Below are positions 1,377 through 58,908 of a stretch of DNA of 64,000 nt, one piece after another. Location: positions 248,001 through 312,000 of the forward strand of contig NZ_LT546028.1 in the NCBI RefSeq assembly GCF_900078305.2, given 5' to 3'. A model generated the notes under the pieces. It saw nothing but the letters and a program-made list of their open reading frames with translations, was not told the origin of the DNA and searched no databases. The stretch comes from Corynebacterium bouchesdurhonense. Lineage in GTDB: Bacteria; Actinomycetota; Actinomycetes; Mycobacteriales; Mycobacteriaceae. Position 1 is the stretch's first letter. Every line of letters begins with the position of its first letter. The translations under genes were made by a program, and so were the position numbers.

Positions 1377-2258
1377 TTACTCGCGGCCGCTCATCAGGTC
1401 GTAGAGGTCCTCGATGTCCGCCACGGCGTTCAGCAGGTCGATGTTGGTGAAAGAGACGGTCTCCAGCGCGTGCCGCAGAAGGTCCGTGTCCGAATCGTCG
1501 ATCATCGGCGCCACCTTCGGCCGCGGCAGGTCCGGCAGCTCGCGCCCGGACCAGAAGAAGGGCGAGCCCTCGCTCGCGTTCTCCTGCGCCAAGGACCGCG
1601 CGCTGCTGCGCACCGTCTCCTCCACCACGGTGGGGCTCAAGTTGCGCAAGGTGAACAGGGAGAGCGGCTCCGCGTCGATGTTTTGGGCGAGCACCTCGGC
1701 GAGCGCCACCGAGTGCTTGCACACCGCGGCGGAATCCGGGCAGTCGCAGTAAAAGCGGAAGTCTCCTGCCTCCGGCGCCAGCAGCGCGTCGAGCACCTCC
1801 GGTGGGAAATCCCCGCGCGCCGCCCGCTCAGACGCCCCGGGGTGGGCGGCCATTGCGCGCAGCGCCTCCTGCAGCTCCTGCGGTGTGCGCGGGGGCAAGA
1901 GCAGGCCGGTGGCAAAGGGCTCGTTCTGGCTGCCCATCACCTCCGCGTCCACGCGGCCCGCGCCGAGACGGAGCGCAACCACGTTGCCGCCCTCGGCGTA
2001 AGCGCGGCCGCGCTTTACCCGCCCGGCATCCGTCTGGCTCGCCGCCGCGTTGACCACCCGCTCCGCCGCAGCTGACAGGCCCCCGCGCGCCGCATCTTTC
2101 AGGCCGCCGCGCGACGGGTGGACCGCCCCAGCAACTGACGGGCCCGTCTCCGCGGCTGACGCCACACGCGTCTTCGTGGTGAAGTTGGCGTAGATGACGT
2201 TATCGTCCCGGCCGTCCCGGCCGTCCCGGTCACCCCGGCCGTCGTTCGGCTTACTCAT
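1377..2258 (-). CDS. SWIM zinc-finger protein
   Basis: A 293-aa protein with a SWIM-type zinc motif, CDCPDSAAVCKH (CxCPx5CxH), at about residues 165-180. The N-terminus is low-complexity, with Asp-Gly-Arg repeats. SWIM domains bind nucleic acid or protein, and in actinobacteria they are often encoded beside SNF2-family helicases. That is the case here: its ATG overlaps the end of the helicase gene by 8 bp, suggesting translational coupling and a joint chromatin or DNA-repair role. The specific function is unknown. Confidence 0.85.
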   Translation of the reverse strand: MSKPNDGRGDRDGRDGRDDNVIYANFTTKTRVASAAETGPSVAGAVHPSRGGLKDAARGGLSAAAERVVNAAASQTDAGRVKRGRAYAEGGNVVALRLGAGRVDAEVMGSQNEPFATGLLLPPRTPQELQEALRAMAAHPGASERAARGDFPPEVLDALLAPEAGDFRFYCDCPDSAAVCKHSVALAEVLAQNIDAEPLSLFTLRNLSPTVVEETVRSSARSLAQENASEGSPFFWSGRELPDLPRPKVAPMIDDSDTDLLRHALETVSFTNIDLLNAVADIEDLYDLMSGRE

Positions 2259-5200
2259 CCTGCCCCCTGTACTGGATCAAGGTGGCCAGATCATCCGAGT
2301 CCAGCTCGGTGATCCAGCCCTCGCCTTCACCGACCACGGTGCCGGCGAGCTCCAGCTTGCCGTCGAGCACCTCCTGGATGCGCTCCTCCATGGTGCCGCG
2401 GGTAATCATCTTGTACACCGTCACGTCCTTATCCTGCCCGATGCGGTACGCCCGGTCCGTGGCCTGGTTCTCCACAGCCGGGTTCCACCAGCGGTCCATG
2501 TGCACCACAATGGACGCCGCCGTGAGGTTGAGCCCCGTGCCGCCGGCCTTGAGGCTGAGCAGCATCGCCGGCGGACCGTCGGCCGCCTGGAAATCCTCCA
2601 CCATCGCGTCGCGCCCGGACTTGCCCACCCCGCCGTGCAGGAAGGGGATCTCCCGGCCGTAGCGGCTGGAAAGGTAGGGCTGGAGGATGTCGCCGAAGGC
2701 CTTGTACTGGGTAAAAATGAGCACCCGCTGCCCGCTCGCGGCCGCCTGATCCAGGATCTCCACCAGCTTCTCCACCTTGCCGGAGCGGTGGCGGCCGTTC
2801 TCGGTCACCGCCGAGCCGTCGCCCAAAAAGTGCGCCGGGTGGTTGCAGATCTGCTTGATGCGAGTCAGCATCGACAGCACCAGCCCCTTGCGCGCCATGC
2901 CGCGGCGCACCTCGAGCTCGCGCTGCATCTCGTCCACCAGCGCCTTGTACAGCGCCGCCTGCTCCGCTGTCATGTCCACGCCGATGACGTGCTCGGCCTT
3001 CTCCGGCAGGTCATCAATAATCGCCGGGTCCGTTTTCAGCCGCCGCAGGATGAACGGCGCGGTGAGCCGCTGCAGCCGCTCCCCCATCTCCTCCGCCAGC
3101 GGGTCCCCCTGGCCGCGCTCGATGGCGCGCGCGAAGTGGTTGCGGAAGAACGCCTGCGAGCCGAGCAGGCCGGGGTTGACAAAGTCCAGGATGCTGCGCA
3201 GCTCGGAGAGCTTGTTCTCGATCGGCGTGCCCGTCAGCGCGAGGCGGTGCCGGGCCGGGATGGAGCGGGCGCTTTTCGACGCTCGCGTCCCCGCGTTCTT
3301 AATCGCCTGCGCCTCATCGAGCACGAGATGGTTCCAGGACACCCGGGCCAGGTCGGCCACGTCCCGGTTGAGCACGCCGTAGGAGGTGACCACCAGGTCC
3401 GCCTCCAGCGCGGCGGCCACCAGTTCGTCGCCCTTGGCGCGCTGGGCGCCGTGGTGCACCAGCACCCGCATGCCGGGCACGAAGCGCCCCGCCTCGCGCG
3501 CCCAGTTGCCCACCACCGAGGTCGGCGCGACCACCAGCGTCGGCCCGTCGGCCACGCCCGCCTCCTGCTCCACCGCCAGGAGGCTGAGCAGCTGGAGGGT
3601 TTTGCCGAGCCCCATGTCGTCGGCAAGCACTGCCCCCAAATTGTTCTTGGACATGAAGTAGAGCCAATCCACCCCGCGGCGCTGGTAGTCCCGCAGCTGC
3701 GCCTTGACGGTTGCGGGTATCTCCACCCGCTCCGGCGCGGGGCTCTCCGCGCCTCCGATGAGTGAGGAGAACCACGGCGAGCCCGTGAACTCGATAGGCG
3801 AGGCCGACCCCGCGTCCGCGTTGGAGTCCAGCGCAAGCTCCCGCAGGTCCGAGGCACTGACGGTGCCGGCCGCCGCCGCGTCCGCCTCGGCAAGCTCCTC
3901 GTACTCCGCGCGGGCGGCCTCGGCTGCGCGGGCCAGCTCCGCCGCGTCCGCGCTGCCCGCCTTCTCGGCCATCGCGGCGAGCACCTCCGCCGCGTCGAGC
4001 GCGGCCTTGGCCTTCTTCAGCGCTTGGGAGTGCAGGCTCTCCATGTATTTCCTGGTGCGCGCGAGCTCTGCAGTGTCCGCCAGCACCCACTCGTCGCGCA
4101 GCTTGACCAGCCCGGACTTCGAGCGCACCAGCTGTTCCATCTCCGCGTCGGTGAGGTCCACCCCGCCGACCGAAAGTCGCCAGTCATAGGCCATGAGGGT
4201 GTCGAAGCCGAGGTGCTTGACCGTGGAGGAATCGTACGGGTTCTCCTGCCGTGCCACGTTCAGCGTGGCCTTGGTCTGGGCGGTGGTCCAGGCCCTGGGC
4301 AGCATCACCGCGAAACCGGCCAGGCGCAGCCGCCCTGCCTCGGTGGTGGCGAAGCGGACAATCTCGTCCGTGGTGAGGTAGATGTCCCAGTCCCCCTCGT
4401 CCGCGGGCGCCGGCACGTGCGCGGGCCGCGGGTGGCGGGCGGGGTCGATGAGGTCCGAGCCGGCGGCGGCGAGCGCGCGCTGCAGCTCGGCCCGCAGCTT
4501 CTGGGCGGTCTGCCCGTCATAATCCAGCTGGCGCACCGGGCGCGGCGCGTCCGAGCCCGAGCGCACCTGGACGCGCACCGGCCACATCGCCGGCGCCCCG
4601 CCCCCGTCCGGGCCCCCGTCCGCGTCCTCGTACGGCTCGGTGGCGATGAACACCAGCTGCAGGTTCACGGCGGTGATCGAGCCGTTCCAGTCCCCCACCC
4701 GCTTGGACAGGGCGGCGCTGCCGCGGCGCAGCGGCAGGCCCAGGAGCAGGGAGCGGATGAAGTCGTGCTGCGCGTGGGGGCGGATGTGCTCCTCCGCCCC
4801 CAGGGACTCCAGCTTGGCCGCCACCACGTCGTGCGTGAGCGTTTTGGCCATGTCCTCGCTCAAGCCCGCGTTGTTGGCCACCAGCACACCCGGCGCCGCG
4901 GCCGTCATCTCCGCCAGCCAGCCGCGCTCCTCCACACCGGTGCCCAGCTGCCACTGCGCGTACCAGTGCCCGTCCCGGCGCGGCACGTGAATGCTCACGC
5001 GCCCGGCGGAGGCGAAGCGGTCCAGGCCGCGGTACATGCGGATCAGCCAGTACAGGTCCGGTGCGATCGCGGCGCGCTGCGAGGCGGTGGCTGCCGGGGA
5101 GCCGGCATCCAAGGGCTCCAGCGCGGCGAGGAACGCCACGGCTTGGCGGGGCGCGAGCGCCACAGTGGGGGCGAGGAGGTGCACCGTTTTGCCCCGCGGG

Positions 5201-5385
5201 GTTTGCAGCTCGATGCGGTTGCGTTGCGCGAACAGGGCTCCGTTAAGAAGCGAGTGCACAATCGGCGGAAAGGTGCCGGAAGGCACCTGCTCGAGGGTGA
5301 CCACCCTGTGGCCTTCGACCTGCTCAATCCACAAATTGAGGCCGGACTGCGGCAACCACAGACCGTGCAACAGGTAATCAGGCAT
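2251..5385 (-). CDS. SNF2/HepA-family DEAD-like helicase
   Basis: A 1044-aa SNF2-type ATPase. The N-terminal half (about 1-540) is the SNF2-associated region typical of bacterial HepA/RapA-like proteins. The C-terminal half carries the helicase motifs: ADDMGLGKT (Walker A, about residue 588), LDEAQ (motif II, about 688), TGTPIENKL (III), LIFTQY (IV) and DRAYRIGQ (VI). Such proteins translocate on double-stranded DNA or remodel nucleoprotein complexes. The ATG at 5385 is chosen over the open frame to 5427 because GGAGGGG lies directly upstream. It is the first gene of a four-gene DNA-processing operon. Confidence 0.9.
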   Translation of the reverse strand: MPDYLLHGLWLPQSGLNLWIEQVEGHRVVTLEQVPSGTFPPIVHSLLNGALFAQRNRIELQTPRGKTVHLLAPTVALAPRQAVAFLAALEPLDAGSPAATASQRAAIAPDLYWLIRMYRGLDRFASAGRVSIHVPRRDGHWYAQWQLGTGVEERGWLAEMTAAAPGVLVANNAGLSEDMAKTLTHDVVAAKLESLGAEEHIRPHAQHDFIRSLLLGLPLRRGSAALSKRVGDWNGSITAVNLQLVFIATEPYEDADGGPDGGGAPAMWPVRVQVRSGSDAPRPVRQLDYDGQTAQKLRAELQRALAAAGSDLIDPARHPRPAHVPAPADEGDWDIYLTTDEIVRFATTEAGRLRLAGFAVMLPRAWTTAQTKATLNVARQENPYDSSTVKHLGFDTLMAYDWRLSVGGVDLTDAEMEQLVRSKSGLVKLRDEWVLADTAELARTRKYMESLHSQALKKAKAALDAAEVLAAMAEKAGSADAAELARAAEAARAEYEELAEADAAAAGTVSASDLRELALDSNADAGSASPIEFTGSPWFSSLIGGAESPAPERVEIPATVKAQLRDYQRRGVDWLYFMSKNNLGAVLADDMGLGKTLQLLSLLAVEQEAGVADGPTLVVAPTSVVGNWAREAGRFVPGMRVLVHHGAQRAKGDELVAAALEADLVVTSYGVLNRDVADLARVSWNHLVLDEAQAIKNAGTRASKSARSIPARHRLALTGTPIENKLSELRSILDFVNPGLLGSQAFFRNHFARAIERGQGDPLAEEMGERLQRLTAPFILRRLKTDPAIIDDLPEKAEHVIGVDMTAEQAALYKALVDEMQRELEVRRGMARKGLVLSMLTRIKQICNHPAHFLGDGSAVTENGRHRSGKVEKLVEILDQAAASGQRVLIFTQYKAFGDILQPYLSSRYGREIPFLHGGVGKSGRDAMVEDFQAADGPPAMLLSLKAGGTGLNLTAASIVVHMDRWWNPAVENQATDRAYRIGQDKDVTVYKMITRGTMEERIQEVLDGKLELAGTVVGEGEGWITELDSDDLATLIQYRGQDE

Positions 5386-5553
5386 ACCCCTCCTTATACC
5401 ACCGGCCCCCAACCCTAACCCCGACACAGCCTCACACAGCGTTTATTTCGCGCGTGAAGCGGGTTTTAGCAAGGCCCCAATGCAGTAAACTCTAGCCATT
5501 TGCAGCACTGGCCGCGCATCGGCCACCGGACCTAGGGAAACGAGGTTGCGCGC

Positions 5554-7122
5554 GTGAGCGAGAACTTCTGGCTGGTTTTGGCCATCGTCTTGTATTTCGG
5601 CCTTATGGTGGCCATCGGGTTCTACTCCTGGCGCAAGACCGCGAAGTACGACGACTACGTGCTCGGAGACCGCGGGCTCAACCCGCTGGTGGCGGGCTTG
5701 AGCGCCGGGGCCTCCGACATGTCCGGGTGGCTGCTGATGGGCCTGCCCGGCGCGTTGTTCGTCTCCGGATTCAGCGAGCTGTGGATTGTGGTGGGCCTGT
5801 TCATCGGCACCTGGGCCAACTGGAAATGGGTCGCACCGCGCCTGCGCTCCTACACCGAGGTGGCCAGCAACTCGATCACCCTGCCCAGCTTCTTTGAAAA
5901 CCGCACGCACGACGCTTCCCGCGTGCTGCGCGTGGTCTCCGCCCTGATTATCATCTTCTTCTTCACCTTCTACGTCTCCTCCGGCATGGTCTCCGGCGGG
6001 CGCTACTACGAGTCCACCTTCGGCGGCAACTACACCACCGGCATGCTCATCGTCGGCTCGATCACGGTGCTCTACACCTTCGTCGGCGGCTTCCTCGCCG
6101 TGAGCTACACCGACGTGGTGCAGGGCGCGCTGATGTTCCTGGCGCTGGTGATCGTGCCCGTGATGGCCCTGGTTGCGCTGGACAACCCCGGGGACATCTT
6201 CAGCTGGGCCACCAACCACGCCTACGGCCCTTGGCCGGAGGGCAACCCGGACTACTTCAACATGGTCGCGGGCGTGTCGCTGGCCACGGTTGTGGGCAAC
6301 GTGGCGTGGGGCCTGGGCTACTTCGGTCAGCCGCACATTATCACCCGCTTCATGGCGCTGCGATCCCCCGCCGAGGCCAAGCAGGCGCGGCGCACGGGCA
6401 TGGTGTGGGTGCTGATCTGCTACCTCGGCGCCGTGTTCACCGCGCTGGTGGCCACCGTGTACTTCTCGCAGAAATCCGCGCGCGTGACGGACCAGGCGGG
6501 TTTTGAGACGGTCTTTCTGGACCTCGCGCGCCTGATGTTCCCCCCCCTGATCGCCGGCGTTATCCTCACCGCCGTGCTGGCCGCGATCATGTCCACCATG
6601 TCGTCCCAGCTGCTCATCACCTCTTCCGCCCTGATCGAGGACCTCTACCGCATTGCAAACAAGCAGCCCTCCCAGCGGGTGCTGCTCTTGGCCTCGCGCG
6701 CCATGGTGGTTGCGGTGGCGCTGGTGGCCATGCTCATGGCGCTCAACCCCTCCGACACCATCCTGGGCCTGGTCGGCTTCGCGTGGGCCGGCTTCGGCGC
6801 GGCGTTCGGGCCCGTGGTGGTCGCTTCGCTCTACTGGCGCAGGCTTACCGCACCCGGCGCCATCGCGGGCATGGTGGTCGGTGCCGTGACCGTCTTTGTG
6901 TGGGGCTCCGTGCCGGCGCTCGCGGATACCATCTACGAGATCGTGCCGGGGGTCGCCTTCGCCACCATCGCAATGGTGCTGGTTTCCCTGCTTACCAAGC
7001 CGAAGTCCGGTGTGGTTGAGGAGTTTGACCGCGCCGTGGCCGTGACCGACTACGCCGTGTCGCACCCGGAATCCACCTTTTCTGAGGCGCTGCGGAACCA
7101 CGGAGGTGTTTCGAACGTCTAA
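5554..7122 (+). CDS. putP: Sodium/proline symporter
   Basis: A 522-aa solute:sodium symporter (SSS family) with about 13 hydrophobic segments, closest in pattern to PutP. It starts with a membrane segment, and the conserved region GLSAGASDMSGWLLMGLPGA (first half of the core) is the PutP signature around the Na+ and proline sites. It would import L-proline as a carbon/nitrogen source or osmolyte. The start is GTG at 5554, with a weak AGGGAAACGAGG upstream. It has its own upstream region of about 170 bp after the divergent helicase gene. Confidence 0.92.
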   Translation: MSENFWLVLAIVLYFGLMVAIGFYSWRKTAKYDDYVLGDRGLNPLVAGLSAGASDMSGWLLMGLPGALFVSGFSELWIVVGLFIGTWANWKWVAPRLRSYTEVASNSITLPSFFENRTHDASRVLRVVSALIIIFFFTFYVSSGMVSGGRYYESTFGGNYTTGMLIVGSITVLYTFVGGFLAVSYTDVVQGALMFLALVIVPVMALVALDNPGDIFSWATNHAYGPWPEGNPDYFNMVAGVSLATVVGNVAWGLGYFGQPHIITRFMALRSPAEAKQARRTGMVWVLICYLGAVFTALVATVYFSQKSARVTDQAGFETVFLDLARLMFPPLIAGVILTAVLAAIMSTMSSQLLITSSALIEDLYRIANKQPSQRVLLLASRAMVVAVALVAMLMALNPSDTILGLVGFAWAGFGAAFGPVVVASLYWRRLTAPGAIAGMVVGAVTVFVWGSVPALADTIYEIVPGVAFATIAMVLVSLLTKPKSGVVEEFDRAVAVTDYAVSHPESTFSEALRNHGGVSNV

Positions 7123-14664: not shown

Positions 14665-14689
14665 AAAAGCCTCCTCCGGGGGGCTTTTT
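14665..14689 (+). terminator. Intrinsic terminator of ldh
   Basis: aaaagcc and ggctttt arms around a short C-rich/G-rich loop, followed by a T-run. It merges directly into copy 3 of the dispersed repeat. Confidence 0.75.
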
Positions 14690-14733: not shown

Positions 14734-15129
14734 ATGGCGAAACACATCGATGTCGTTGGAGCCGTCATCGTCCGCGACGGGCTGGTCCTGGCTGCCCGAC
14801 GCGGCCCCGCTATGTCCATGGCGGGCTTGTGGGAGTTCCCCGGCGGCAAGATCGAGGCTGGCGAAACCAAGCAGGAATCCCTCGCCCGAGAGATCAGCGA
14901 GGAGCTCGGGGTAGCCATCGAGGTCGGCGAACACATCGTCACCACAAGTTACGAATACGGCTTCGGAACGGTGAACCTCTCGACGTACTACTGCGCGCTG
15001 GATGACTCGACCCCAGTAGCCCGCGAGCACGCCGAGCTTCGGTGGGTGGAACCTCGCCAGCTGCTCTCGCTCGAATGGGCGCCTGCCGACGTGGAGGCAG
15101 TCAACCTCGTCGTTTCGAGGTTCGGATAG
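14734..15129 (+). CDS. NUDIX hydrolase (MutT-like), first gene of helicase cassette
   Basis: A 131-aa MutT-type NUDIX pyrophosphohydrolase. The Nudix box spans about residues 34-56, from GGKIEAGE to REISEELG, with all Glu ligands present. It would hydrolyse a nucleoside diphosphate derivative such as an oxidised dNTP. Only 3 bp separate its stop from the next ATG, so it is coupled to the large PLD/helicase gene. NUDIX domains are, to my knowledge, found next to or fused with DUF3427 helicases, so the pair probably acts together rather than this being housekeeping MutT. Confidence 0.88.
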   Translation: MAKHIDVVGAVIVRDGLVLAARRGPAMSMAGLWEFPGGKIEAGETKQESLAREISEELGVAIEVGEHIVTTSYEYGFGTVNLSTYYCALDDSTPVAREHAELRWVEPRQLLSLEWAPADVEAVNLVVSRFG

Positions 15130-15132
15130 ACG

Positions 15133-18078
15133 ATGGGCCGCTCTCTCGAATCGCTGCAAAGCGATATTCAATTCGGATTTATCGATCGGAATGCCGAGGC
15201 CGCCTTCATCGAGAACCCGGCTCTCATCGCCAACGAAGACGAATCCACGATGTTCAGCTTCCTGCGCTCGGAGCTGGCAACTGCGGATAGCTTCATTTTC
15301 TCGGTCGCGTTTGTTTCAGCTGATGGCGTGGGTGCAATCAAACAGGATCTGCAAACCTTTAACGGCCGCGGCGTGATCGTCACCGGTACTTACCTCGACT
15401 TCAACGAGCCTGCGGCATTGCGTGAATTACTCACGCTGAAAAACGTTGATGTGTTCGTTATGGAAGGTGTGCCCCACCACGCCAAGGGCTACATTTTCAC
15501 CCATTCAGATCACATCACCGCGGTGATCGGGAGTTCTAACCTCACTCGAACTGCGCTGATCTCGAACCGGGAGTGGAATGTACGGTTCTCCACCCACAAA
15601 GACGGTGATATTGCCTGGCAACTGAAACAGGCCGCGCACAACCACCGTGCGAATGCGGTCCCACTGACCGAAGAATGGATTGCCAACTACGAACGGGAGC
15701 GCGAACCCAGACGCATTGTCATCAGAGACTCCCAGCCGGTAGCAATAACACCGGACGGAGAACAGATCGAGCCAAACGCCATGCAGGTGGAAGCGCTCTC
15801 GGCCCTGGATGAAGTCGTCCAGAAGGGCGGGAAGCGTGCACTCATCATCTCGGCGACAGGAACCGGCAAGACCATTCTCGCCGCACTCGCGGCGCGTCAG
15901 CTGCAGGCAAGCCGCATCCTGTTCGTAGTGCACCGCGAGCAAATCCTCCGGAGCGCCGCAGACTCTTTCAAACGAGTGCTCGGGCTTGAAGACGGTCATA
16001 TTGGATTTCTCGTCGGAAATCAGCGCGAAACAAACAGAAAGGTGGTCTTCTCGACTATCCAATCGCTGTCCAAGATGGAGACACTCGCCGAAATCTCACC
16101 CGTTCATTTCGACCTGGTGATCATCGATGAGGTTCACCGTTCCGGCGCTATCTCCTACCAGCGCGTACTGGATTATTTCCACCCAAAGTTCACGCTGGGC
16201 CTCACAGCGACTCCGGAGCGCTCCGACGGTTTCAACATTTACAAGCTCTTTGACTACAACGTGCCGTACGAGATCCGACTCGAGGGCGCGCTCGAAAACC
16301 ACATGCTGGTCCCGTTCGATTACTACGGGGTCACGGACTATCAGAACGCCCGCGGCTCCATCGGCGATTCCTCGAAGCTGTCTGATCTTCTTTCAACGGA
16401 GCGTGTCTCCTACATTGTGGAGGCAATACAGGACTATTCCTTCGCCGAAGGCAGCAAAGGGCTGATCTTCTGCAGCAGTAATAAGGAAGCCGCAGGCTTG
16501 TCGGCAGCGCTCAATATGCGGGACGCCCACGGGAAGCGCTTGCGAACGGAAGCGATTTCGGGATCCACCCCGGTCGACGAACGCCTTCGGGTCGTCAGCA
16601 GACTCGAATCTGGTGAGCTAGATTACATCCTCACCGTCGATATCTTCAACGAGGGCATTGATATCCCCGCGGTTAATGTGGTGATCTTCCTCCGCAGCAC
16701 AGAGTCTTCCATCATCTTCACGCAGCAGCTCGGGCGGGGGCTGCGGAAGGCCGACGGAAAGAAATCACTGCGAGTCATCGACTTTATCGGGAACTACGCG
16801 AACAACTACCTCATCCCGATTGCTCTTACAGGCGAGCACTCCGCAGATCCGGACAAAATCCGTGAGAAGGTCCGGAAAACCAGGCGGAACCCGGTAGCGG
16901 GAGGATCGACTGTCAGCTTCGATGAGGTTTCCACTGCCCGCATTGTCGAATCGCTGAAGAAAGCCCGCCTGACCAGTCAGGTGGCCAAGCGGAAGGAGAT
17001 CGCTGCGCTCGAATCGCGTCTCGGTCGGACTCCCATGCTCTCCGATTTTGTGATCCAACAGGCCATGGATCCATTTATCCTGGCTGCGACGACTGAGAAG
17101 GACGGTAAATCACGAAATTACTGGTCCCTTCTTCACAAATTGGGATTTGTAGAGGCTGGTCCATCCGCTCGCGAACAACAATTTCTGTCATTCGTGACGG
17201 TAGAGCTGCTCAACGGCAAACGCCCGCAGGAATTGCTTTTACTCCAAGAACTGCTGCGAGAGGGGCCCGACGGCATCGTCTCTACAGAGCGATATGCGGA
17301 GATTCTCACCCGATGGCACTCCAGCATCCAGGTCAGCGAGATAATGCTGCGGACCGTGGAGAATATTCTTTCGATCACATGGTTTAAAGACGCAGGCCGG
17401 AAGATGTACGGCGCTAGCCCGCTGGTGGAGCGCGACGAACGCGGTTTTCGGTTAGGTCCAGACTTCGCCGGGCTGTACTTCTCTTATTCTGGAAGCCATC
17501 CTTCGCCCGAGGCGAGCTTTAGACACCACGTGGACGACGTTATCAAGACCGGGCTCATGATTAATGCTCGGCGATATGGTCGATCCGATGAGCTGGTCGT
17601 CGGGGAGATATACACCCGCAAGGACGTCTCTCGACTTCTGAATTGGAGTTCGAATGGGCAATCTACGATGTTCGGGTACAAGGTTGATAAAGAAACGGGT
17701 ACCTGCCCTATCTTTGTCACGTACCACAAGGGAGCTGACGTAGCGGCAAGCATGCGCTATGAGGACACGTTGCTTGACACCTCCACCATGCGATGGTTCT
17801 CCCGCCACGGCTATCGGCTGGATAGCAAAGGGTTGCAACCCATCCTGGACGGCTCCGTCGACCTTCTTCTCTTTGTGAAACGCGAGGATGCGGAGGGAAC
17901 TGGTTTCTACTACCTCGGCCAAGTCGACGCTGAGAATGCGCGCCAAACTGTCATGCGAGGCAACGCGGGGGAAAACTTAGACGTTGTCATCACTGACCTA
18001 AAGATCCGCGTCCCTATTGAATCCTCGCTTTTCGACGTCATCACCGCTAACAAGCTCGTTGACCAGCACGGAAAGTAA
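15133..18078 (+). CDS. PLD-nuclease / DEAD-like helicase / DUF3427 protein
   Basis: A 981-aa multidomain enzyme. Residues about 30-170 form a phospholipase D-type nuclease domain: H116-x-K118 in HHAKGY, then GSSNLT. About 210-590 is a superfamily-2 helicase: SATGTGKT with K246, DEVH at 332-335, LTATPERSDG, FCSSNKEA, and QQLGRGLRK as motif VI. The C-terminal third matches the DUF3427 pattern (a YTRKDVSRLLNW-like element near residue 830, then TYHKG). The architecture is that of a DNA-targeting motor nuclease. Base composition is lower in GC than all flanking genes, a sign of transfer. A role in defence against foreign DNA is inferred. Confidence 0.88.
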   Translation: MGRSLESLQSDIQFGFIDRNAEAAFIENPALIANEDESTMFSFLRSELATADSFIFSVAFVSADGVGAIKQDLQTFNGRGVIVTGTYLDFNEPAALRELLTLKNVDVFVMEGVPHHAKGYIFTHSDHITAVIGSSNLTRTALISNREWNVRFSTHKDGDIAWQLKQAAHNHRANAVPLTEEWIANYEREREPRRIVIRDSQPVAITPDGEQIEPNAMQVEALSALDEVVQKGGKRALIISATGTGKTILAALAARQLQASRILFVVHREQILRSAADSFKRVLGLEDGHIGFLVGNQRETNRKVVFSTIQSLSKMETLAEISPVHFDLVIIDEVHRSGAISYQRVLDYFHPKFTLGLTATPERSDGFNIYKLFDYNVPYEIRLEGALENHMLVPFDYYGVTDYQNARGSIGDSSKLSDLLSTERVSYIVEAIQDYSFAEGSKGLIFCSSNKEAAGLSAALNMRDAHGKRLRTEAISGSTPVDERLRVVSRLESGELDYILTVDIFNEGIDIPAVNVVIFLRSTESSIIFTQQLGRGLRKADGKKSLRVIDFIGNYANNYLIPIALTGEHSADPDKIREKVRKTRRNPVAGGSTVSFDEVSTARIVESLKKARLTSQVAKRKEIAALESRLGRTPMLSDFVIQQAMDPFILAATTEKDGKSRNYWSLLHKLGFVEAGPSAREQQFLSFVTVELLNGKRPQELLLLQELLREGPDGIVSTERYAEILTRWHSSIQVSEIMLRTVENILSITWFKDAGRKMYGASPLVERDERGFRLGPDFAGLYFSYSGSHPSPEASFRHHVDDVIKTGLMINARRYGRSDELVVGEIYTRKDVSRLLNWSSNGQSTMFGYKVDKETGTCPIFVTYHKGADVAASMRYEDTLLDTSTMRWFSRHGYRLDSKGLQPILDGSVDLLLFVKREDAEGTGFYYLGQVDAENARQTVMRGNAGENLDVVITDLKIRVPIESSLFDVITANKLVDQHGK

Positions 18079-18113
18079 TTCCCTGTCGTCCGGGCGGGTT
18101 GCGCGTGGGTGAG

Positions 18114-18119
18114 ATAAGA
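18114..18119 (+). promoter_or_regulatory. Possible -10 box TAAGAT of the ParA-like gene
   Basis: It lies 30 nt before the GTG at 18150 in the only gap of the cassette, suggesting the ParA-like gene can be transcribed separately. Confidence 0.35.
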
Positions 18120-18149
18120 TCCGGCAGGTCGCAATGAACTGGAGGAAAC

Positions 18150-19232
18150 GTGTCTGGCGTCAGAACCCTGAGCTTTTTCAACAACAAGGGGGGCGTCGGC
18201 AAGACCACCCTTTCGACGAACGTTGCATACAACTTCTCCCAGAGGGGTAAACGGGTTCTCTACGTCGACTGTGACCCGCAGTGCAACGCCACGCAGCTCC
18301 TCCTAAACGAAAAACAGACCGCGGCCATCTACGACGGTGATGCTGACCCAAAGGACGCGCTCCAAAAATCCCTAGGCAAGACGGTTTACGGCCTGTTTAT
18401 TCCACTGCGCGAAGGTGAGCCCGAGATTGACCATGAAATCCCGGTGTATCGGTCTGAGCGCTTCAAAGTCGACGTGATGGCCGGGCATTCGATGCTGTCC
18501 CAGATCGAAGATGTGATGTCGTCCGCGTGGCAAGCGGCTCTCAGTAAGGAGACGGCGTCGTTCCGGCGCGTGCATTGGGCAGGTCAGCTGGTATCTGCAA
18601 TGGAGAAAGCGGATCGGTATGACGTGATCATGTTCGACGTGGGACCGAGCCTCGGTCCATTCAACCGGACAGTCCTGCTGGGTTGTGATGCATTTGTCAC
18701 CCCAACCGCGACCGACCTGTTCAGCTACCACGCATTTGGAAACTTGGCGCGCTGGTTCGACGCGTGGGTGTCGGAGTATTCCGAGATGGCAGAGGCAAAC
18801 GTCAGCCGATGGCGAGAGTTCAGTCCGAGTTACCAAAAGAAAGCACAAAGCCTGCGCATTCCTGGCCACGGTGGTAGCCAGCTCCAATACCTCGGCTACA
18901 CCACCCTGGAATACGTAAAGAAGAAAGCGAACGGCGAAGAAAAACTTGTTGGGGCATTCGAGCGATTCCGAGACAAGTTCTCGGACGAGGCGCGAACCAT
19001 TGGCCACACGCTGGGCCAGCGCGAAACCGAGTACCTGCTGGGTCACGTTCCCCACATGTTCTCAATGCCCGCAACTGCGCAAGATGTGCACGCCCCAATC
19101 GCGGACTTGCAGGCCAAGGACGGCGTACGTGGAGCTACGTTAAACCAGCGCGATAGTTACGCAGCCAAAATCAGGGACGTTGCGGACGCGGTGCACGACC
19201 GTCTCTTCACCCCAGAGGAGGCTAGCCAGTAG
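18150..19232 (+). CDS. ParA/MinD-family ATPase of the helicase cassette
   Basis: A 360-aa ParA-like ATPase. The deviant Walker A, KGGVGKTT with K13 and K18, follows a beta strand at the N-terminus. VDCDPQCNATQLL is the switch I region and MFDVGPSLGPFN the Walker B region. It is longer than chromosomal ParA (about 280-300 aa), with an insert around residues 210-290. No parB or parS is adjacent, so plasmid-style partition is unlikely. Start GTG 18150 has GGAGG 5 nt upstream. It shares low GC with the upstream helicase. A regulatory or spatial role in the cassette is inferred. Confidence 0.85.
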   Translation: MSGVRTLSFFNNKGGVGKTTLSTNVAYNFSQRGKRVLYVDCDPQCNATQLLLNEKQTAAIYDGDADPKDALQKSLGKTVYGLFIPLREGEPEIDHEIPVYRSERFKVDVMAGHSMLSQIEDVMSSAWQAALSKETASFRRVHWAGQLVSAMEKADRYDVIMFDVGPSLGPFNRTVLLGCDAFVTPTATDLFSYHAFGNLARWFDAWVSEYSEMAEANVSRWREFSPSYQKKAQSLRIPGHGGSQLQYLGYTTLEYVKKKANGEEKLVGAFERFRDKFSDEARTIGHTLGQRETEYLLGHVPHMFSMPATAQDVHAPIADLQAKDGVRGATLNQRDSYAAKIRDVADAVHDRLFTPEEASQ

Positions 19233-21107: not shown

Positions 21108-21932
21108 TTACGCAGTTGCGGCTGTCGCGCCCGCGGAACCCTGGCCCTCGCGCGGGGCGAAGGCGTCCACGGTGCGCTTGGGCAGCGCCTTCACCGTGGC
21201 GTAGGCGATGAGCATGACCAGGATCTTGTCCACCGGGTCCGAGATGAACGCCTGCGTGGTTACCGACGCGATCAGCGAGCCGCCCATCTCGCGGAACAGG
21301 CTCACCAGCGCGCCGGTGCCCACGCCCGCGGTGCCGCCGTAGACGAAGGCGGCCACCGGGGCGGCCACCATGCCGCCAACCAGGCCCAACAGCAGGCCGT
21401 AGAGCACCACGGTGCCGAGGTGCTTAAACGCGTGGAAGCGGTGGATGAACACGCCGGAGAGGTAGCCCACCAGCGCGGCGCCCGCGGCGAACGGCAGGGC
21501 CGCCGGGTTGAGCAGGCCCCACACCACGTTGTTCAGCGCGCCCGTGGTCATGCCGGCCACGGGCCCGGCCAGGGCGGCCACCAGCACGGTGCCGATGGTG
21601 TCCAGGTAGAGAGGCAGGCCGATGGAGCCCACGATCTCCCCCACCACCGAGTTGATGATCATCGCGATCGGGATCAGGCCCAGCGTGCGCGCCGGCAGCA
21701 CCGGCACGGTGGCGGCGAGCAGCAGGGCCGTGCCCGCACCGTAGCCCAGCAGGGTGATAATGCCCTGCGTGGAGCCGGTGACGTTCTCCCAGTCCGTCGG
21801 GCGGACCAAGACGAGGTATAGCCAGGTGGCAGCGATGATCGCGGCGCCGGCGATGACTAGGCCGCGCCGCGCGGGCGTCCATTCGGCGCCGCCGCGGCGG
21901 CTGGTGGCGGGTGCGGTAGTGACAGTGGGCAT
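21108..21932 (-). CDS. ECF transporter S (substrate-binding) component
   Basis: A 274-aa membrane protein with six or more hydrophobic segments, including GPVAGMTTGALNNVVWGLLNP typical of ECF S components with an extended loop. It determines the vitamin or nucleobase-like substrate, which cannot be read from the sequence. The next gene upstream in transcription encodes a nucleoside hydrolase, so a nucleoside-derived base or a modified base is a reasonable guess. Start ATG 21932 has GAAGG 6 nt upstream. The 91-bp leader (21933-22023) shows no riboswitch I can identify. Confidence 0.75.
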   Translation of the reverse strand: MPTVTTAPATSRRGGAEWTPARRGLVIAGAAIIAATWLYLVLVRPTDWENVTGSTQGIITLLGYGAGTALLLAATVPVLPARTLGLIPIAMIINSVVGEIVGSIGLPLYLDTIGTVLVAALAGPVAGMTTGALNNVVWGLLNPAALPFAAGAALVGYLSGVFIHRFHAFKHLGTVVLYGLLLGLVGGMVAAPVAAFVYGGTAGVGTGALVSLFREMGGSLIASVTTQAFISDPVDKILVMLIAYATVKALPKRTVDAFAPREGQGSAGATAATA

Positions 21933-55719: not shown

Positions 55720-56406
55720 TCAAGCGGTGGTTGCACCACTTTGTGCTAGTTGTTGCATCATCTCACGCGGTGTCATGCCGTTGAAGATGACTCTGGGCGT
55801 GTCGTTGAGTTCGTCTTGGACCCAGGCGACGTGGTCGACGGTGACTTCTTTGAAGTCGGTGGCTTTGGGGTAGAACCGGCGCCGGATCTCGCCGTTGGTG
55901 TTTTCGTTGGTGGGGCGCTGCCAGGGTGAGTGCGGGTCGCAGAAGTACACCGCACAGCCTTCCGCAATTTTCACCTGGGCGGTCATCGCCATTTCTGCCC
56001 CTTGATCCCAGGTGATGGTCTTTAGCTGCTCTTTGTTGAGGTCTTTGACCATGTCCTGGATCGTTTCCACCACTGTCTTCGAGCTGTGGTCGTCTGGAAG
56101 GTGACCTAACAGGGTAAATCGGGTGGTGCGCTCAACCAGGGTGATCAGGGCACTCTTGCCGTTTTTGCCGATGACGAGGTCGCCTTCCCAGTGCCCGAAG
56201 ATGGCCCGGTCGTCGACTTCAGGGGGGCGTGTGGTGATTTCAGCACCCTTGATCCAGCCACGTCGGTTGGTCAGCAACCCAGCGGTGCGTTTGCGTGGTT
56301 TGCGTTGTGCCCCGCCGCGGATCAGCGCGTGTTGGTCTTTGATGTAGGCCTCGAGTTCTTGACGCAGGCTGCCGGCACCTTGAATGTAGATGGCGCTGTA
56401 GATCGA
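55720..56406 (-). pseudogene. IS30 transposase, C-terminal fragment
   Basis: Encodes about 227 residues with the catalytic core: FGHWEGDLVIG (first Asp), TWDQGAEMA (second Asp) and QRPTNENTNG (Glu). It continues the frame of the 57847-58908 fragment: HESI joins YSAIYIQ exactly when the inserted element and one TAGATCGA copy are removed. The current upstream codons (MKLLSDQ..., from 56457) come from the inserted element's left end, so any product would be a chimera. Confidence 0.85.
56399..56406. repeat. Target-site duplication TAGATCGA (left)
   Basis: Identical to 57848-57855; the 8-bp length is usual for IS256-family insertion. Confidence 0.9.
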
Positions 56407-57847
56407 GAGAGTGTCAGGAAGTTTGTGTGTGAGGCTCTGATCTGAAAGGAGTTTCACCGATAATGACTACGGTGTCACCGAAGAAAGGCTATGACCCGTC
56501 GAGGGTCAACGCGATCAGCGAGAAGCTGATGGATAACCCCGAGCTCGCAAAGCTCATCGGGGAGCTCTCCACCTCCACCGACGACGCCAGTGAGCTGGTG
56601 AAGGGGCTTTTGCAGGCATCGATCAACGCTGGCCTGCAGGCGGAGATGGACGCCCATTTGGGCTACGAGCACTCCGACCGCAAAGCCAAAGCCCAGGTAG
56701 ATACCGGTGATGGTGGTAACCACCGCAACGGGTCCTACACCAAAACCGTGGATTCTGGCTATGGCCCGCTGGAAGTGACCGTGCCCAGGGATCGGGCGGG
56801 GACGTTTCGCCCGCAGATGGTGCCCAAAGGTGTCCGCAGGCTCACCGAGCTTGATGACATGATCATCTCCCTGTACGCGGGTGGGATGACCGTGCGCGAC
56901 ATCCAGCACCACCTTGCAACCACCCTTGGGGTGGACATGAGCCCGGATACCATCAGCACGATCACCGACGCGGTGCTCGATGAGGTGATGCTGTGGCAGA
57001 ACCGCCAGCTAGATGAGTTCTACCCGGTGATCTTCCTCGACGCACTTAGAGTCAAGATCCGCGACGGCCACCGCGTGGTCAACAAGTCCTGCTACATGGC
57101 CGTTGGCGTGGACATGGACGGCATCAAACACATCTTGGGGTTGTGGATCGCTGATACCGAAGGTGCCGCATTTTGGGCATCCGTATGCGCTGACCTTGCC
57201 AACCGTGGGGTGCAAGACGTGTTCATCGTCTGCTGCGACGGACTCAAAGGCCTGCCCGAGGCGGTCGAAGCGACGTGGCCGAATTCCATGGTGCAAACCT
57301 GCATCGTGCACCTGATCCGGGCGGCGAATAGGTGGGTGTCCTACCAGGACCGCAAACCCGTCTCCCGAGCGCTGCGGAAGGTCTACACCGCACCGAATGA
57401 GGACACCGCCCGTGCCGCCCTAGACGCGTTCGAGGCATCTGAGCTTGGGCGCCGCTACCCGCAATCGGTGAAGGTGTGGCGCGACGCGTGGGACCGGTTC
57501 GTGCCGTTTCTGCAGTTCCCTCCGGCGGCCCGCCGGGTGCTCTACACCACGAACTCGATCGAGTCGCTTAATGCTGAGTTGCGCAAAGCCACCCGGAACC
57601 GGGGCCAGTTCCCGAACGATACCGCGGCGTTGAAGACGTTGTGGTTGATGATTTGCAACATCGAAGACAAGCGCGCCGCCCAGCGGGCGAAGAAAGCGAA
57701 ACGGGTAACCGAATCCAACGGCTATATTGAAGGGGCGAAAGCCACCGGGTGGAAACAAGCCATCAACCAACTAGCCGTGGCATACCCCGACCGATTCGCG
57801 GACTACTTGTAAACTAAGCCCCCGCACACAAACAATCGGACACTCTC
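56407..57847 (+). mobile_element. IS256-family insertion sequence inside IS30
   Basis: A 1441-bp element. Terminal inverted repeats of 23 bp (56407-56429 and 57825-57847) match at 19 positions, starting GAGAGTGTC. It is flanked by the 8-bp target duplication TAGATCGA and carries one intact transposase gene. The intact ends and perfect duplication suggest a recent insertion. Confidence 0.93.
56463..57812 (+). CDS. IS256-family transposase
   Basis: A 449-aa MULE-type DDE transposase. The catalytic residues lie in FLDALRVKIRD (first Asp), CCDGLKGLPEA (second Asp) and TTNSIESLNAELRK (Glu with the conserved NSIES context). The N-terminal helical domain carries DAHLGYEHSDR, a family hallmark. The frame is complete, with no stop or frameshift, so the element could be active. 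ATG 56463 starts 56 bp inside the left end. Confidence 0.95.
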   Translation: MTTVSPKKGYDPSRVNAISEKLMDNPELAKLIGELSTSTDDASELVKGLLQASINAGLQAEMDAHLGYEHSDRKAKAQVDTGDGGNHRNGSYTKTVDSGYGPLEVTVPRDRAGTFRPQMVPKGVRRLTELDDMIISLYAGGMTVRDIQHHLATTLGVDMSPDTISTITDAVLDEVMLWQNRQLDEFYPVIFLDALRVKIRDGHRVVNKSCYMAVGVDMDGIKHILGLWIADTEGAAFWASVCADLANRGVQDVFIVCCDGLKGLPEAVEATWPNSMVQTCIVHLIRAANRWVSYQDRKPVSRALRKVYTAPNEDTARAALDAFEASELGRRYPQSVKVWRDAWDRFVPFLQFPPAARRVLYTTNSIESLNAELRKATRNRGQFPNDTAALKTLWLMICNIEDKRAAQRAKKAKRVTESNGYIEGAKATGWKQAINQLAVAYPDRFADYL

Positions 57848-58908
57848 TAGATCGATTCGTGGGAGATGTGCATAGCCCCATCATCCGGGTAGCAGCTACG
57901 CAAACGCCGCTCGATGCGCTTAGGCGACCATCGCCTGGCTAAACCGGCCAGCACTTCTTGACGCAGTAGCAGGCAAACGTCAATCTTTCGGGGCTTGGGG
58001 CGCCGTTTGCGCTCGGCGGTGAGCTCTTCAGCGTGCTCAACGTTGTAGAAGGTTGTGACGGCCCCATCATGGTCGATGCAGGTGACGGCGTTTCGTTCTA
58101 TCTCACGCTTGACCACAGTGTGGTCGCGGCCTATATCCCGACCGATCGCGCGGATGCTGCGACCGGCTGCGATCCCTTCAGCAATGCGGATACGATCCAC
58201 TGTGCTCAAACGGGTTCCCCGCCCAACTTTCTCGCCGGCTTGGCTGGGTTGTGTGCTTACGACACGAGGCTCTGTGATCGTCATGGCCTCATTTTTCAAC
58301 CACAGGTATACAGTGGCCTCACTCAAGCTAAGCGTGTCGGCGATCTGGGGCACCCGCCACCCTCTATTTGCCAGTACGAGCGCTTCTGCTCGTTTCTTCG
58401 TGAAGTGCTTCTGGCTGCCCCGTGGGCCTTGCACACCCGCTTTGCCCATCCACACATACACTGCGTGCGCGCTGCGGCCGATCTCTTTCGCAACATGGTA
58501 AGGGCTACGCCCAGCACGCACCTGCGTCAACGCGTACTCCCGCTCCTGGGCAGTAGCGTTTTTCACCCCCGCCACCGCAATGGGTGATTCCTGGCGCAGC
58601 CGATAACACAACGCCCCCGGATCCATCCCAACCATTTGAGCAGCCTTGGCCTGGCTCATCCCTAGCGCGAGCAGCTTCTTCGCCTCAACGAACAACGCGT
58701 CATTAGCAGCCGCTTTAGCATTCTTCGGCGCAGGCACACCGGCTTTCCTCAACCATCTCCACACATTGTGCTTCGTGACGCCTAACGAAGAAGCAACCTC
58801 GGCAACCATCTCACCAGCCGCCACCCGAGCAACCGCCTCCCGGCGAACCTCCGCGGGGATCTCCTTCGAACCCACAACAACCACCTCTTTCTGTCTGAGG
58901 TGGTGCAT
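57847..58908 (-). pseudogene. IS30 transposase, N-terminal fragment
   Basis: About 353 codons with several repeated helix-turn-helix segments (EIPAEVRREAVARVAAGE, SQAKAAQMVGMD, YHVAKEIGRSAHAVYVW, RVPQIADTLSLSEATVYLW) and then the IS30-type STVDRIRIAEGIAAG with HISHESI. The many HTH repeats make this N-terminus unusually long for IS30, which commonly totals about 380-460 aa. It stops at a TAG created by the inserted element. Confidence 0.85.
57848..57855. repeat. Target-site duplication TAGATCGA (right)
   Basis: Second copy of the IS256 target duplication. It creates the stop codon that ends the N-terminal IS30 fragment. Confidence 0.9.

What the first reader, a model, noticed from the sequence alone, without database searches (positions are those of the whole stretch)
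14734..19232. Candidate defence cassette: NUDIX + PLD/helicase/DUF3427 + ParA-like ATPase
Three co-directed genes, visibly less GC-rich than both flanks, lie between ldh and an ECF transporter operon. Gene 1 and gene 2 are 3 bp apart. The 981-aa protein joins a PLD nuclease domain to an SF2 helicase and DUF3427, an architecture suited to attacking DNA. A ParA-type ATPase without ParB or parS is an unusual third member. The PLD-helicase family is known to me, but I do not know this three-gene set as a described system.
Basis: partly seen in the sequence, partly recalled or inferred. Interest (0 to 1): 0.72.

Follow-up and report, generated by a model that had tools for sequence, protein, structure and literature searches.

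The report
Methyl-DNA-cutting enzyme with nucleotide-cleaning partner
A bacterial enzyme that probably shreds DNA carrying methylated cytosine has, in most of the close relatives examined, a small partner enzyme that may destroy methylated building blocks before they enter DNA, which suggests how such cells could avoid cutting their own genome.

Summary
In detail: three co-directed genes, 56.7% GC against 67.9% for the window. Gene 2 is a full-length homologue of SauUSI, the type IV restriction enzyme that shreds 5-methylcytosine DNA; catalytic and 5mC-pocket residues are kept. Gene 1 (NUDIX, PADLOC PDC-S07) is its usual partner: present in 86 of 86 nuclease-bearing Corynebacterium genomes (84 adjacent) against 15 of 115 others, and within 4 kb in 79 of 80 loci of Actinobacteria and Bacilli, in three gene orders. 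Distant plasmid homologues lack it (6 of 6 checked). In nuclease-free genomes the NUDIX often stands by C5-cytosine methyltransferases (7 of 16, five with NaeI/NgoMIV-type nucleases); one plasmid copy is fused to an HNH nuclease whose HNH part resembles a type IV enzyme. Characterised relatives hydrolyse 5-methyl-dCTP. Reading: a pool guard that keeps 5-modified dCTP out of DNA, preventing self-restriction. Nuclease-bearing genomes hold fewer C5 methyltransferases (13/86 vs 69/115) but not fewer type I systems (38/86 vs 54/115). ParA is not part of the unit (10 of 86 nuclease-bearing genomes, 7 adjacent). The pairing is mentioned in print; I found no mechanism proposed in the papers searched. 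No activity was tested.

The parts
14734..15129 (+). NUDIX hydrolase (PDC-S07 family), predicted 5-methyl-/5-hydroxymethyl-dCTP pyrophosphohydrolase; intact Nudix box and D119 (aligned with D118 of NudG)
15133..18078 (+). [quoted passage not shown] Y849, F861, V862, D878, W888)
   Evidence: PMC7913695 sections 24 and 25
18150..19232 (+). ParA-like ATPase (3pg5 family); neighbour at the hot spot, not a constant member of the unit
14670..14683 (+). terminator-like hairpin + T run behind ldh
   Evidence: 7 such sites found in the region against 4.4 in shuffles, so weak alone

Best explanation
Genes 1 and 2 form a two-gene type IV restriction unit. Gene 2 recognises 5-methylcytosine (and probably 5-hydroxymethylcytosine) with its SRA-like domain, translocates with its SF2 motor and shreds the DNA with a PLD nuclease dimer, as SauUSI does (inferred from full-length homology and kept residues). 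[quoted passage not shown] Polymerases take 5-methyl-dCTP much like dCTP, so free 5-methyl-dCTP, for example from degraded methylated invader DNA or made by a phage, would put 5mC at random into the host's own DNA and turn the nuclease on the host. The NUDIX keeps 5mC a mark that only an enzyme acting on DNA can write: a metabolic antidote to self-restriction. Beside C5 methyltransferase systems the same activity would stop 5mC from being placed by polymerases, for instance into invading DNA that should stay cleavable. ParA is a separate hot-spot gene. Likelihoods: SauUSI-type enzyme 0.95; functional NUDIX-nuclease coupling 0.9 in this subfamily; 5-modified dCTP as substrate 0.7; self-protection as the role 0.45 (lowered from 0.5 because distant homologues do without the NUDIX).
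For: Gene 2: SauUSI (7clg, 953 aa; accession named in PMC7913695) aligned over 1-957, E 3e-192; PADLOC mREase_IV 657 bits; SauUSI H119/K121 and pocket Y831, F841, D858, W868 identical, I842 to V. Coupling: NUDIX in 86/86 nuclease-bearing and 15/115 other Corynebacterium genomes; within 4 kb in 78 of 80 fetched loci of the genus and 79 of 80 named loci, 69 of the 80 being non-Corynebacterium; three gene orders, at least 9 changes of order on a quick NUDIX tree; pair on plasmids of two Lactobacillaceae and a Hymenobacter; 6 of 7 phage-collection records with the NUDIX also hold the nuclease. 5mC theme: 9 NUDIX genes within 4 kb of a C5 methyltransferase in 21 genomes with both, about 0.09 expected; NaeI/NgoMIV-type systems; none of 112 type I HsdR places within 10 kb of a NUDIX on the same contig; HNH-NUDIX fusion whose HNH part matches a type IV model. 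Substrate: solved relatives include NudG (2rrk), MutT2 (5zrc) and 3gwy; 3gwy/Q5LBB1 turns over 5-Me-dCTP and 5-hydroxymethyl-dCTP at 4.8e6 and 4.4e6 M-1 s-1, with much lower activity on canonical NTPs; NudG and MutT2 are reported best on 5-methyl-dCTP. C5 methyltransferases are rarer in nuclease-bearing genomes, type I systems are not.
Against: No activity was tested. The NUDIX does not go with every PLD-helicase-DUF3427 protein: of 22 plasmid records with a nuclease match (E <= 1e-30) only 5 also have a NUDIX match (E <= 1e-18), 4 of the 5 near-full-length ones and 1 of the 17 partial ones; 6 distant homologues looked at have no NUDIX within 4 kb by annotation or profile, nor has the full-length Fusobacterium homologue (L201). 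Such nucleases manage without this partner nearby. The window NUDIX is distant from the characterised enzymes (74-86 bits); MutT2 also acts on other dNTPs; 3ees, recalled to be the RNA pyrophosphohydrolase BdRppH, scores as well as MutT2. The PDC-S07 model also rings in E. coli and 4 other control genomes, probably on housekeeping NudG-like genes. In Bacilli 30 of 80 fetched NUDIX genes have neither nuclease nor C5 methyltransferase within 4 kb; of ten neighbours checked nine are housekeeping-like and one is an HNH. Association tests are not corrected for ancestry. G016 has a C5 methyltransferase at the ldh site and no PDC-S07 at E <= 1e-30. SauUSI M829 (intercalating residue) is F847 here, a variable column. 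A host kinase that would make 5-methyl-dCTP is not shown; PMC10742078 cites phage kinases.
Confidence: 0.6

Rival explanations
1. The NUDIX is a second weapon, not an antidote: it drains 5-hydroxymethyl-dCTP (or other modified dCTP) that phages make for their genomes, while the nuclease destroys modified DNA already made.
For: The characterised relative 3gwy does not discriminate 5-methyl- from 5-hydroxymethyl-dCTP. SauUSI also cuts 5hmC DNA (PMC7913695). The unit sits in a variable site and on plasmids.
Against: Draining the pool would remove the very mark that the nuclease needs. It does not explain why the same NUDIX stands beside C5 methyltransferases of ordinary restriction-modification systems.
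Confidence: 0.2
2. The NUDIX is a general sanitiser (8-oxo-dGTP or similar) or the retained edge gene of a hot spot, with no functional link to 5-methylcytosine.
For: NUDIX GC (0.636) is close to the chromosome while gene 2 is 0.554. At shared sites the left flank and NUDIX stay while the enzyme behind changes. Solo copies exist, above all in Bacilli. Distant nuclease homologues lack it.
Against: 100 of 115 nuclease-free Corynebacterium genomes have no PDC-S07 match at E <= 1e-30. The pair is on plasmids and in different gene orders. Partners include 5mC makers and 5mC cutters, and none of 112 type I HsdR places is near it. Fusion to an HNH nuclease.
Confidence: 0.15
3. The three genes are one new defence system in which ParA regulates or localises the nuclease.
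For: Co-directed genes; ParA directly behind the nuclease in 7 of the 80 fetched Corynebacterium loci, window included, and in C. stercoris (L118).
Against: 76 of 86 nuclease-bearing genomes lack this ParA at E <= 1e-60. It also lies by NUDIX-C5 methyltransferase-NaeI, DrmB-C5 methyltransferase and Z1 modules. None was found in the 69 loci of other genera (flanks of at most 5 kb).
Confidence: 0.04

Closest known systems
SauUSI (type IV restriction enzyme of Staphylococcus aureus, PDB 7clg)
   Same: Alignment of residues 1-957 to 1-938, same four-domain order, HxK residues and 5mC pocket kept. In the S. aureus sequence fetched (L197, a phage-labelled contig) the SauUSI-like gene has the NUDIX directly upstream, 97% identical to PDB 5x1x.
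   Different: About 38% identical to the S. aureus copy. E126 of the HxK(x)4E motif is T123 and M829 is F847 here; both columns vary among the 18 aligned sequences. The SauUSI structure paper has no occurrence of nudix, mutT or operon in its main text.
PADLOC PDC-S07 (phage defence candidate)
   Same: Gene 1 scores 169 bits over residues 1-127.
   Different: The model also rings in control genomes such as E. coli, where it probably finds housekeeping nudG.
NudG/Orf135, mycobacterial MutT2, Bacteroides fragilis Q5LBB1 (3gwy)
   Same: Catalytic Nudix-box residues and the equivalents of H99, W104 and D119 shared.
   Different: These are described as pool-cleaning enzymes; the window gene is tied to a nuclease. 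Its substrate is untested. The genomic neighbours of Q5LBB1 were not looked up.
CglI/NgoAVII restriction systems
   Same: PLD nuclease plus SF2 ATPase.
   Different: Two subunits, with a B3 recognition domain (PMC7913695, section 24); here one chain with an SRA-like domain and no C5 methyltransferase in the genome at E <= 1e-20.

Membership tests
SauUSI-type type IV restriction enzyme | PLD nuclease - SF2 ATPase - coupler - SRA/DUF3427 in one chain | tested here: met
SauUSI-type type IV restriction enzyme | catalytic H and K of HxK | tested here: met
   H116, K118, invariant in 18 of 18 aligned sequences
SauUSI-type type IV restriction enzyme | 5mC-binding pocket residues | tested here: met
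   Y849, F861, D878, W888 identical; I842 to V862; M829 (intercalating) to F847
SauUSI-type type IV restriction enzyme | no cognate C5 methyltransferase | tested here: met
   no PF00145 match in the own genome at E <= 1e-20
SauUSI-type type IV restriction enzyme | cleaves only modified DNA (S5mCNGS for SauUSI, recalled) | not testable with these tools
   needs purified enzyme
NudG/MutT2-type 5-methyl-dCTP pyrophosphohydrolase | Nudix box GX5EX7REUXEEXGU (motif recalled) | tested here: met
   window residues 38-60 by eye; its key residues invariant or nearly so in the nuclease-linked homologues
NudG/MutT2-type 5-methyl-dCTP pyrophosphohydrolase | reaches the curated NudG equivalog cut-off | tested here: not met
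   NF007834: 110.5 bits against 156, so related to but not filed as NudG
NudG/MutT2-type 5-methyl-dCTP pyrophosphohydrolase | prefers 5-substituted dCTP | not testable with these tools
   inferred from relatives
Three-gene system NUDIX + nuclease + ParA | conserved co-occurrence of all three | tested here: not met
   ParA in 10 of 86 nuclease-bearing genomes, adjacent in 7
ParA partition system | ParA ATPase with ParB partner | tested here: inconclusive
   ParA fold family and KGGVGKTT motif present; the following gene is on the other strand; parS and distant ParB not searched

The most novel reading that the evidence does not exclude
A dedicated guard of the nucleotide pool is an extra component of immunity built on cytosine C5 methylation. 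One NUDIX lineage that destroys 5-methyl-/5-hydroxymethyl-dCTP serves type IV nucleases of two unrelated folds and C5 restriction-modification systems alike, acting as a metabolic antitoxin that keeps polymerases from writing or blurring the self/non-self mark.
Probability: 0.42. Interest if true: 0.85.

Novelty: new variant of a known kind. Interest (0 to 1): 0.6.

Why it matters
Type IV enzymes have no methyltransferase to label self; their safety rests on the host having no target base in its DNA. If polymerases can insert 5-methyl-dCTP, that safety may need a guard of the nucleotide pool, and this small gene is a candidate that can be tested with ordinary enzymology. [quoted passage not shown] It would give a listed defence candidate a defined substrate and role.

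Tried and rejected
ParA as a constant third component: rejected. A novel helicase family: rejected. The NUDIX as an accidental neighbour: rejected for this subfamily; but, made while checking this report, show that distant homologues lack it, so an earlier wording that the pair is found almost everywhere was dropped and the odds for self-protection lowered. A tie to restriction in general rather than 5mC: not supported, as none of the 112 type I HsdR places lies within 10 kb of a PDC-S07 place on the same contig (nearest about 78 kb, G107; read by eye; distances across contigs cannot be told).

Led nowhere: the promoter scan found no sigma-70-type site; PMC3624529 (MutT2) and gkr098 (first SauUSI paper) are not held; searches for nudix with modification-dependent restriction and 5-methylcytosine, and for nudix with DNA methyltransferase and NaeI, gave 0 papers. 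PADLOC models gave nothing at E <= 1e-10 for 5 of 10 genes beside ParA and mixed labels for the rest. The structure-prediction jobs were not used: a solved homologue exists for each of the three proteins.

Rows left out or mixed in: 6 of the 86 nuclease-bearing genomes (G005, G006, G052, G093, G105, G190) were not fetched as loci; their coordinates place the NUDIX about 0.4-1.0 kb upstream on the same strand. The 86 include 36 of a second, 34%-identical group or fragments, a truncated copy (G097), a 664-aa frame (G160) and six matches with a stop inside (G004, G006, G061, G125, G137, G190). Of 89 Bacilli NUDIX places 78 were fetched, plus 2 from G203. Pfam was asked about neighbours of 10 of the 30 Bacilli loci without a partner. 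The tree holds some species twice. Of 17 partial plasmid homologues 6 were looked at. The NUDIX-methyltransferase expectation is a rough uniform model.

Full report
What is there. The window lies in a 2.26-Mb genome, G000. It is a Corynebacterium: G078, of the same genus, has a contig of the same length as C. wankanglinii CP061031.1. Three co-directed genes fill the space between ldh and genes on the other strand. The stretch has 56.7% GC against 67.9% for the window.

Gene 2 is a SauUSI-type enzyme. Its closest solved chain is 7clg, E 3e-192 over nearly the whole length; PMC7913695 gives 7CLG as the SauUSI structure. PADLOC's methyl-directed restriction model gives 657 bits. I read sections 24 and 25 of that paper: the PLD active site uses H119 and K121, and the SRA-like domain is modelled to flip 5-methylcytosine into a pocket of Y831, F841, I842 and W868, with D858 contacting the base. 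In the window these are H116, K118, Y849, F861, V862, W888 and D878; M829 is F847 and E126 is T123, both in variable columns. The own genome has no C5 methyltransferase at E <= 1e-20.

Gene 1 is its usual partner in the genus. In 201 Corynebacterium genomes the nuclease (E <= 1e-60) is in 86 and the PDC-S07 NUDIX (E <= 1e-30) in 101: all 86 nuclease-bearing genomes and 15 of 115 others (Fisher 1.5e-41; not corrected for ancestry). Of 80 fetched nuclease loci 78 have it within 4 kb: 77 upstream and 1 downstream, all on the same strand. The two exceptions, G166 and G097 (truncated nuclease), carry a PDC-S07 NUDIX elsewhere. In the six genomes not fetched, coordinates put it upstream too.

The pairing reaches other genera and is not due to one gene order. 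Of 80 loci from named genomes (11 Corynebacterium, 69 other Actinobacteria and Bacilli), 79 have the NUDIX within 4 kb: 69 upstream on the same strand, 9 convergent, 1 downstream. The exception, L184, ends at a contig edge. These 80 are the best matches of a capped search, so they favour close homologues. Pairs are on plasmids of Lactiplantibacillus, Latilactobacillus and Hymenobacter, and 6 of 7 phage-collection records with the NUDIX also hold the nuclease, while 6 of 9 nuclease records hold the NUDIX. On a quick tree of 264 NUDIX sequences gene order changes at least 9 times with adjacency kept (some species are in twice, 197 of 211 nuclease-linked sequences are distinct). The S. aureus NUDIX beside the SauUSI-like gene is 97% identical to the solved "Mutator mutT protein" 5x1x.

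Where the pairing ends. Of 22 plasmid records with a nuclease match 5 also have a NUDIX match: 4 of the 5 that cover at least 80% of the query, not Fusobacterium, and 1 of 17 partial ones. I looked at 6 of the partial ones (Pseudoalteromonas, Rhodobacter, Hymenobacter swuensis, Peptoclostridium, Spiroplasma, Paracoccus): none has a NUDIX annotated or found by profile within 4 kb. So the rule holds for SauUSI proper and for the second Corynebacterium group (about 34% identical), not for the whole PLD-helicase-DUF3427 superfamily.

The unexpected part. I fetched the neighbourhoods of the 15 NUDIX-bearing genomes without the nuclease, and of G166 and G097 (17 loci). The 15 genomes hold 16 such NUDIX genes: 7 lie within 4 kb of a C5-cytosine methyltransferase, 2 beside a Z1-domain ATPase, 1 beside a decayed nuclease, and 6 in other contexts, two of these at contig ends; G166 and G097 add two more of the last kind. 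Pfam confirmed C5 methyltransferase plus NaeI-type nuclease in L203, L204, L206 and L214 and plus NgoMIV-type in L213. By coordinates 9 NUDIX genes lie within 4 kb of a C5 methyltransferase in the 21 genomes with both, about 0.09 expected; in one of these, G009, the nuclease lies between. Of the 10 methyltransferase- or Z1-linked NUDIX sequences on the tree, 5 have a nuclease-linked one as nearest relative, and for the other 5 the first relative outside this set is nuclease-linked. In 8 of 8 Corynebacterium loci of this kind the flank upstream of the NUDIX matches the same side of at least one nuclease-linked locus (side checked): the enzyme behind a standing NUDIX has been exchanged.

Further partners. 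On a Paenibacillus polymyxa plasmid the NUDIX is fused to an HNH nuclease whose HNH part matches a type IV model at 83 bits; one Bacilli locus has an HNH gene 9 nt behind the NUDIX with 75 bits to the same model. Only the HNH part matches, so the reader domain is unproven. Less clear: a weak EVE match beside a Selenomonas NUDIX (18 bits, below its cut-off), an HNH with type II labels in Sphingomonas and an Eco57I-type enzyme in Lactobacillus.

Controls. Of 112 type I HsdR places in 92 of 201 genomes none lies within 10 kb of a PDC-S07 place on the same contig (read by eye). C5 methyltransferases are in 13 of 86 nuclease-bearing and 69 of 115 other genomes (p 7e-11); type I systems in 38 of 86 and 54 of 115 (p 0.78). 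This is as expected of a 5mC-dependent enzyme, with the caveat of shared ancestry.

Results against. In Bacilli, of 80 NUDIX loci taken from the NUDIX side, 49 have the nuclease within 4 kb (24 convergent, 21 with the NUDIX upstream, 4 with it downstream), 1 has a methyltransferase at 3.6 kb, and 30 have neither; of ten neighbours checked nine are housekeeping-like and one is an HNH. Family members thus also exist as solo genes, as nudG does. NUDIX GC is near chromosomal while the nuclease's is not.

Substrate. The closest solved relatives are 5x1x (no activity data seen), NudG (2rrk), 3ees (recalled as BdRppH), MutT2 (5zrc) and 3gwy. From passages of PMC5158307: 3gwy (Q5LBB1) hydrolyses 5-Me-dCTP at 4.8e6 and 5-hydroxymethyl-dCTP at 4.4e6 M-1 s-1, with much lower activity on canonical NTPs; NudG is listed with 5-methyl-dCTP far above CTP. 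[quoted passage not shown] polymerases incorporate 5-methyl-dCTP like dCTP; its source may mainly be degraded methylated DNA; phage kinases for 5-methyl-dCMP are reported. The catalytic Nudix-box residues and D119 are kept in the nuclease-linked homologues.

Mechanism. Shown: the pairing and its limits, the exchanges, the kept residues, the scarcity of C5 methyltransferases. Inferred: the nuclease cuts 5mC/5hmC DNA; the NUDIX removes 5-modified dCTP; the purpose is to stop self-restriction beside a type IV enzyme and to keep the methyl mark under methyltransferase control beside a C5 system. That distant homologues lack the NUDIX means either that they have another guard or another target, or that the guard is helpful rather than needed.

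ParA. This ParA family is in 22 of 201 genomes: beside the nuclease in 7, near other restriction modules (C5 methyltransferase with NaeI, DrmB or Z1; Z1 alone) in 5, the rest unclear. C. stercoris (L118, not seen among the 201) also has all three genes in a row. Its closest solved relative is 3pg5.

The site. Between ldh and the gene at 21108-21932, the window has NUDIX-nuclease-ParA, G002 NUDIX-nuclease, G009 NUDIX, a nuclease of the second group and a C5 methyltransferase, and G016 a C5 methyltransferase without NUDIX. These are the genomes, among the 31 searched, where both flanks lie within 16 kb of each other; none of the four sites is empty.

What is in print. PMC7641849 notes in one figure legend that small "DNA repair" proteins beside SauUSI homologues are MutT homologues (passages). 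PMC12813430 reports PDC-S07 and type IV systems co-localised in 23 of 23 occurrences in S. suis (passage). PMC11514479 lists PDC-S07 in two S. thermophilus strains (passages). Searches of an open-access library showed no mechanism for the pair in what I saw (listings and passages), which is not proof of absence elsewhere.

Noticed in passing
window 55720-58908: Second low-GC stretch (about 0.59-0.62): a 449-aa transposase (+, looks like the Mutator/IS256 type) lies between two pieces of what looks like one IS30-type transposase on the minus strand, i.e. nested insertion sequences. Family names are by eye, not searched.
   Followed up: partly
L372:3921-5381 (Paenibacillus polymyxa plasmid NZ_CP010270.1): One 487-aa protein joins an HNH nuclease to a PDC-S07 NUDIX; the first 265 residues are unidentified and could be a modified-base reader.
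   Followed up: partly
L292:4668-5495: HNH protein 9 nt behind a NUDIX; by eye its N-terminus has a YTGxG...DQ pattern like SRA domains (recalled, no Pfam match).
   Followed up: no
L322-L336: The 3pg5-type ParA lies near diverse restriction modules in several Corynebacterium genomes; it may be a restriction-associated ATPase in its own right.
   Followed up: partly
L114 (G009), 1926-6244: A nuclease of the second SauUSI-like group and a C5 methyltransferase are convergent neighbours, so this nuclease must tolerate that methyl mark, or one of the two is inactive.
   Followed up: no
PADLOC model PDLC04899 (PDC-S07): The model rings in E. coli and other control genomes, so the report of PDC-S07 in 99% of Enterobacter genomes (PMC12851794, passages) may be housekeeping nudG rather than defence.
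   Followed up: partly
L198:3541-8936 (Lactiplantibacillus plasmid): The NUDIX-nuclease pair is followed by a MazG-like protein and a GIY-YIG/SLFN-g3 helicase protein; the MazG-like DCTPP1 of man is a 5-methyl-dCTPase (listing).
   Followed up: no
L375:3785-9560 and L374:3962-9860 (plasmids): Distant nuclease homologues without NUDIX sit beside a SIR2-family gene or an ABC-three-component system (annotation), i.e. other defence-type neighbours.
   Followed up: no
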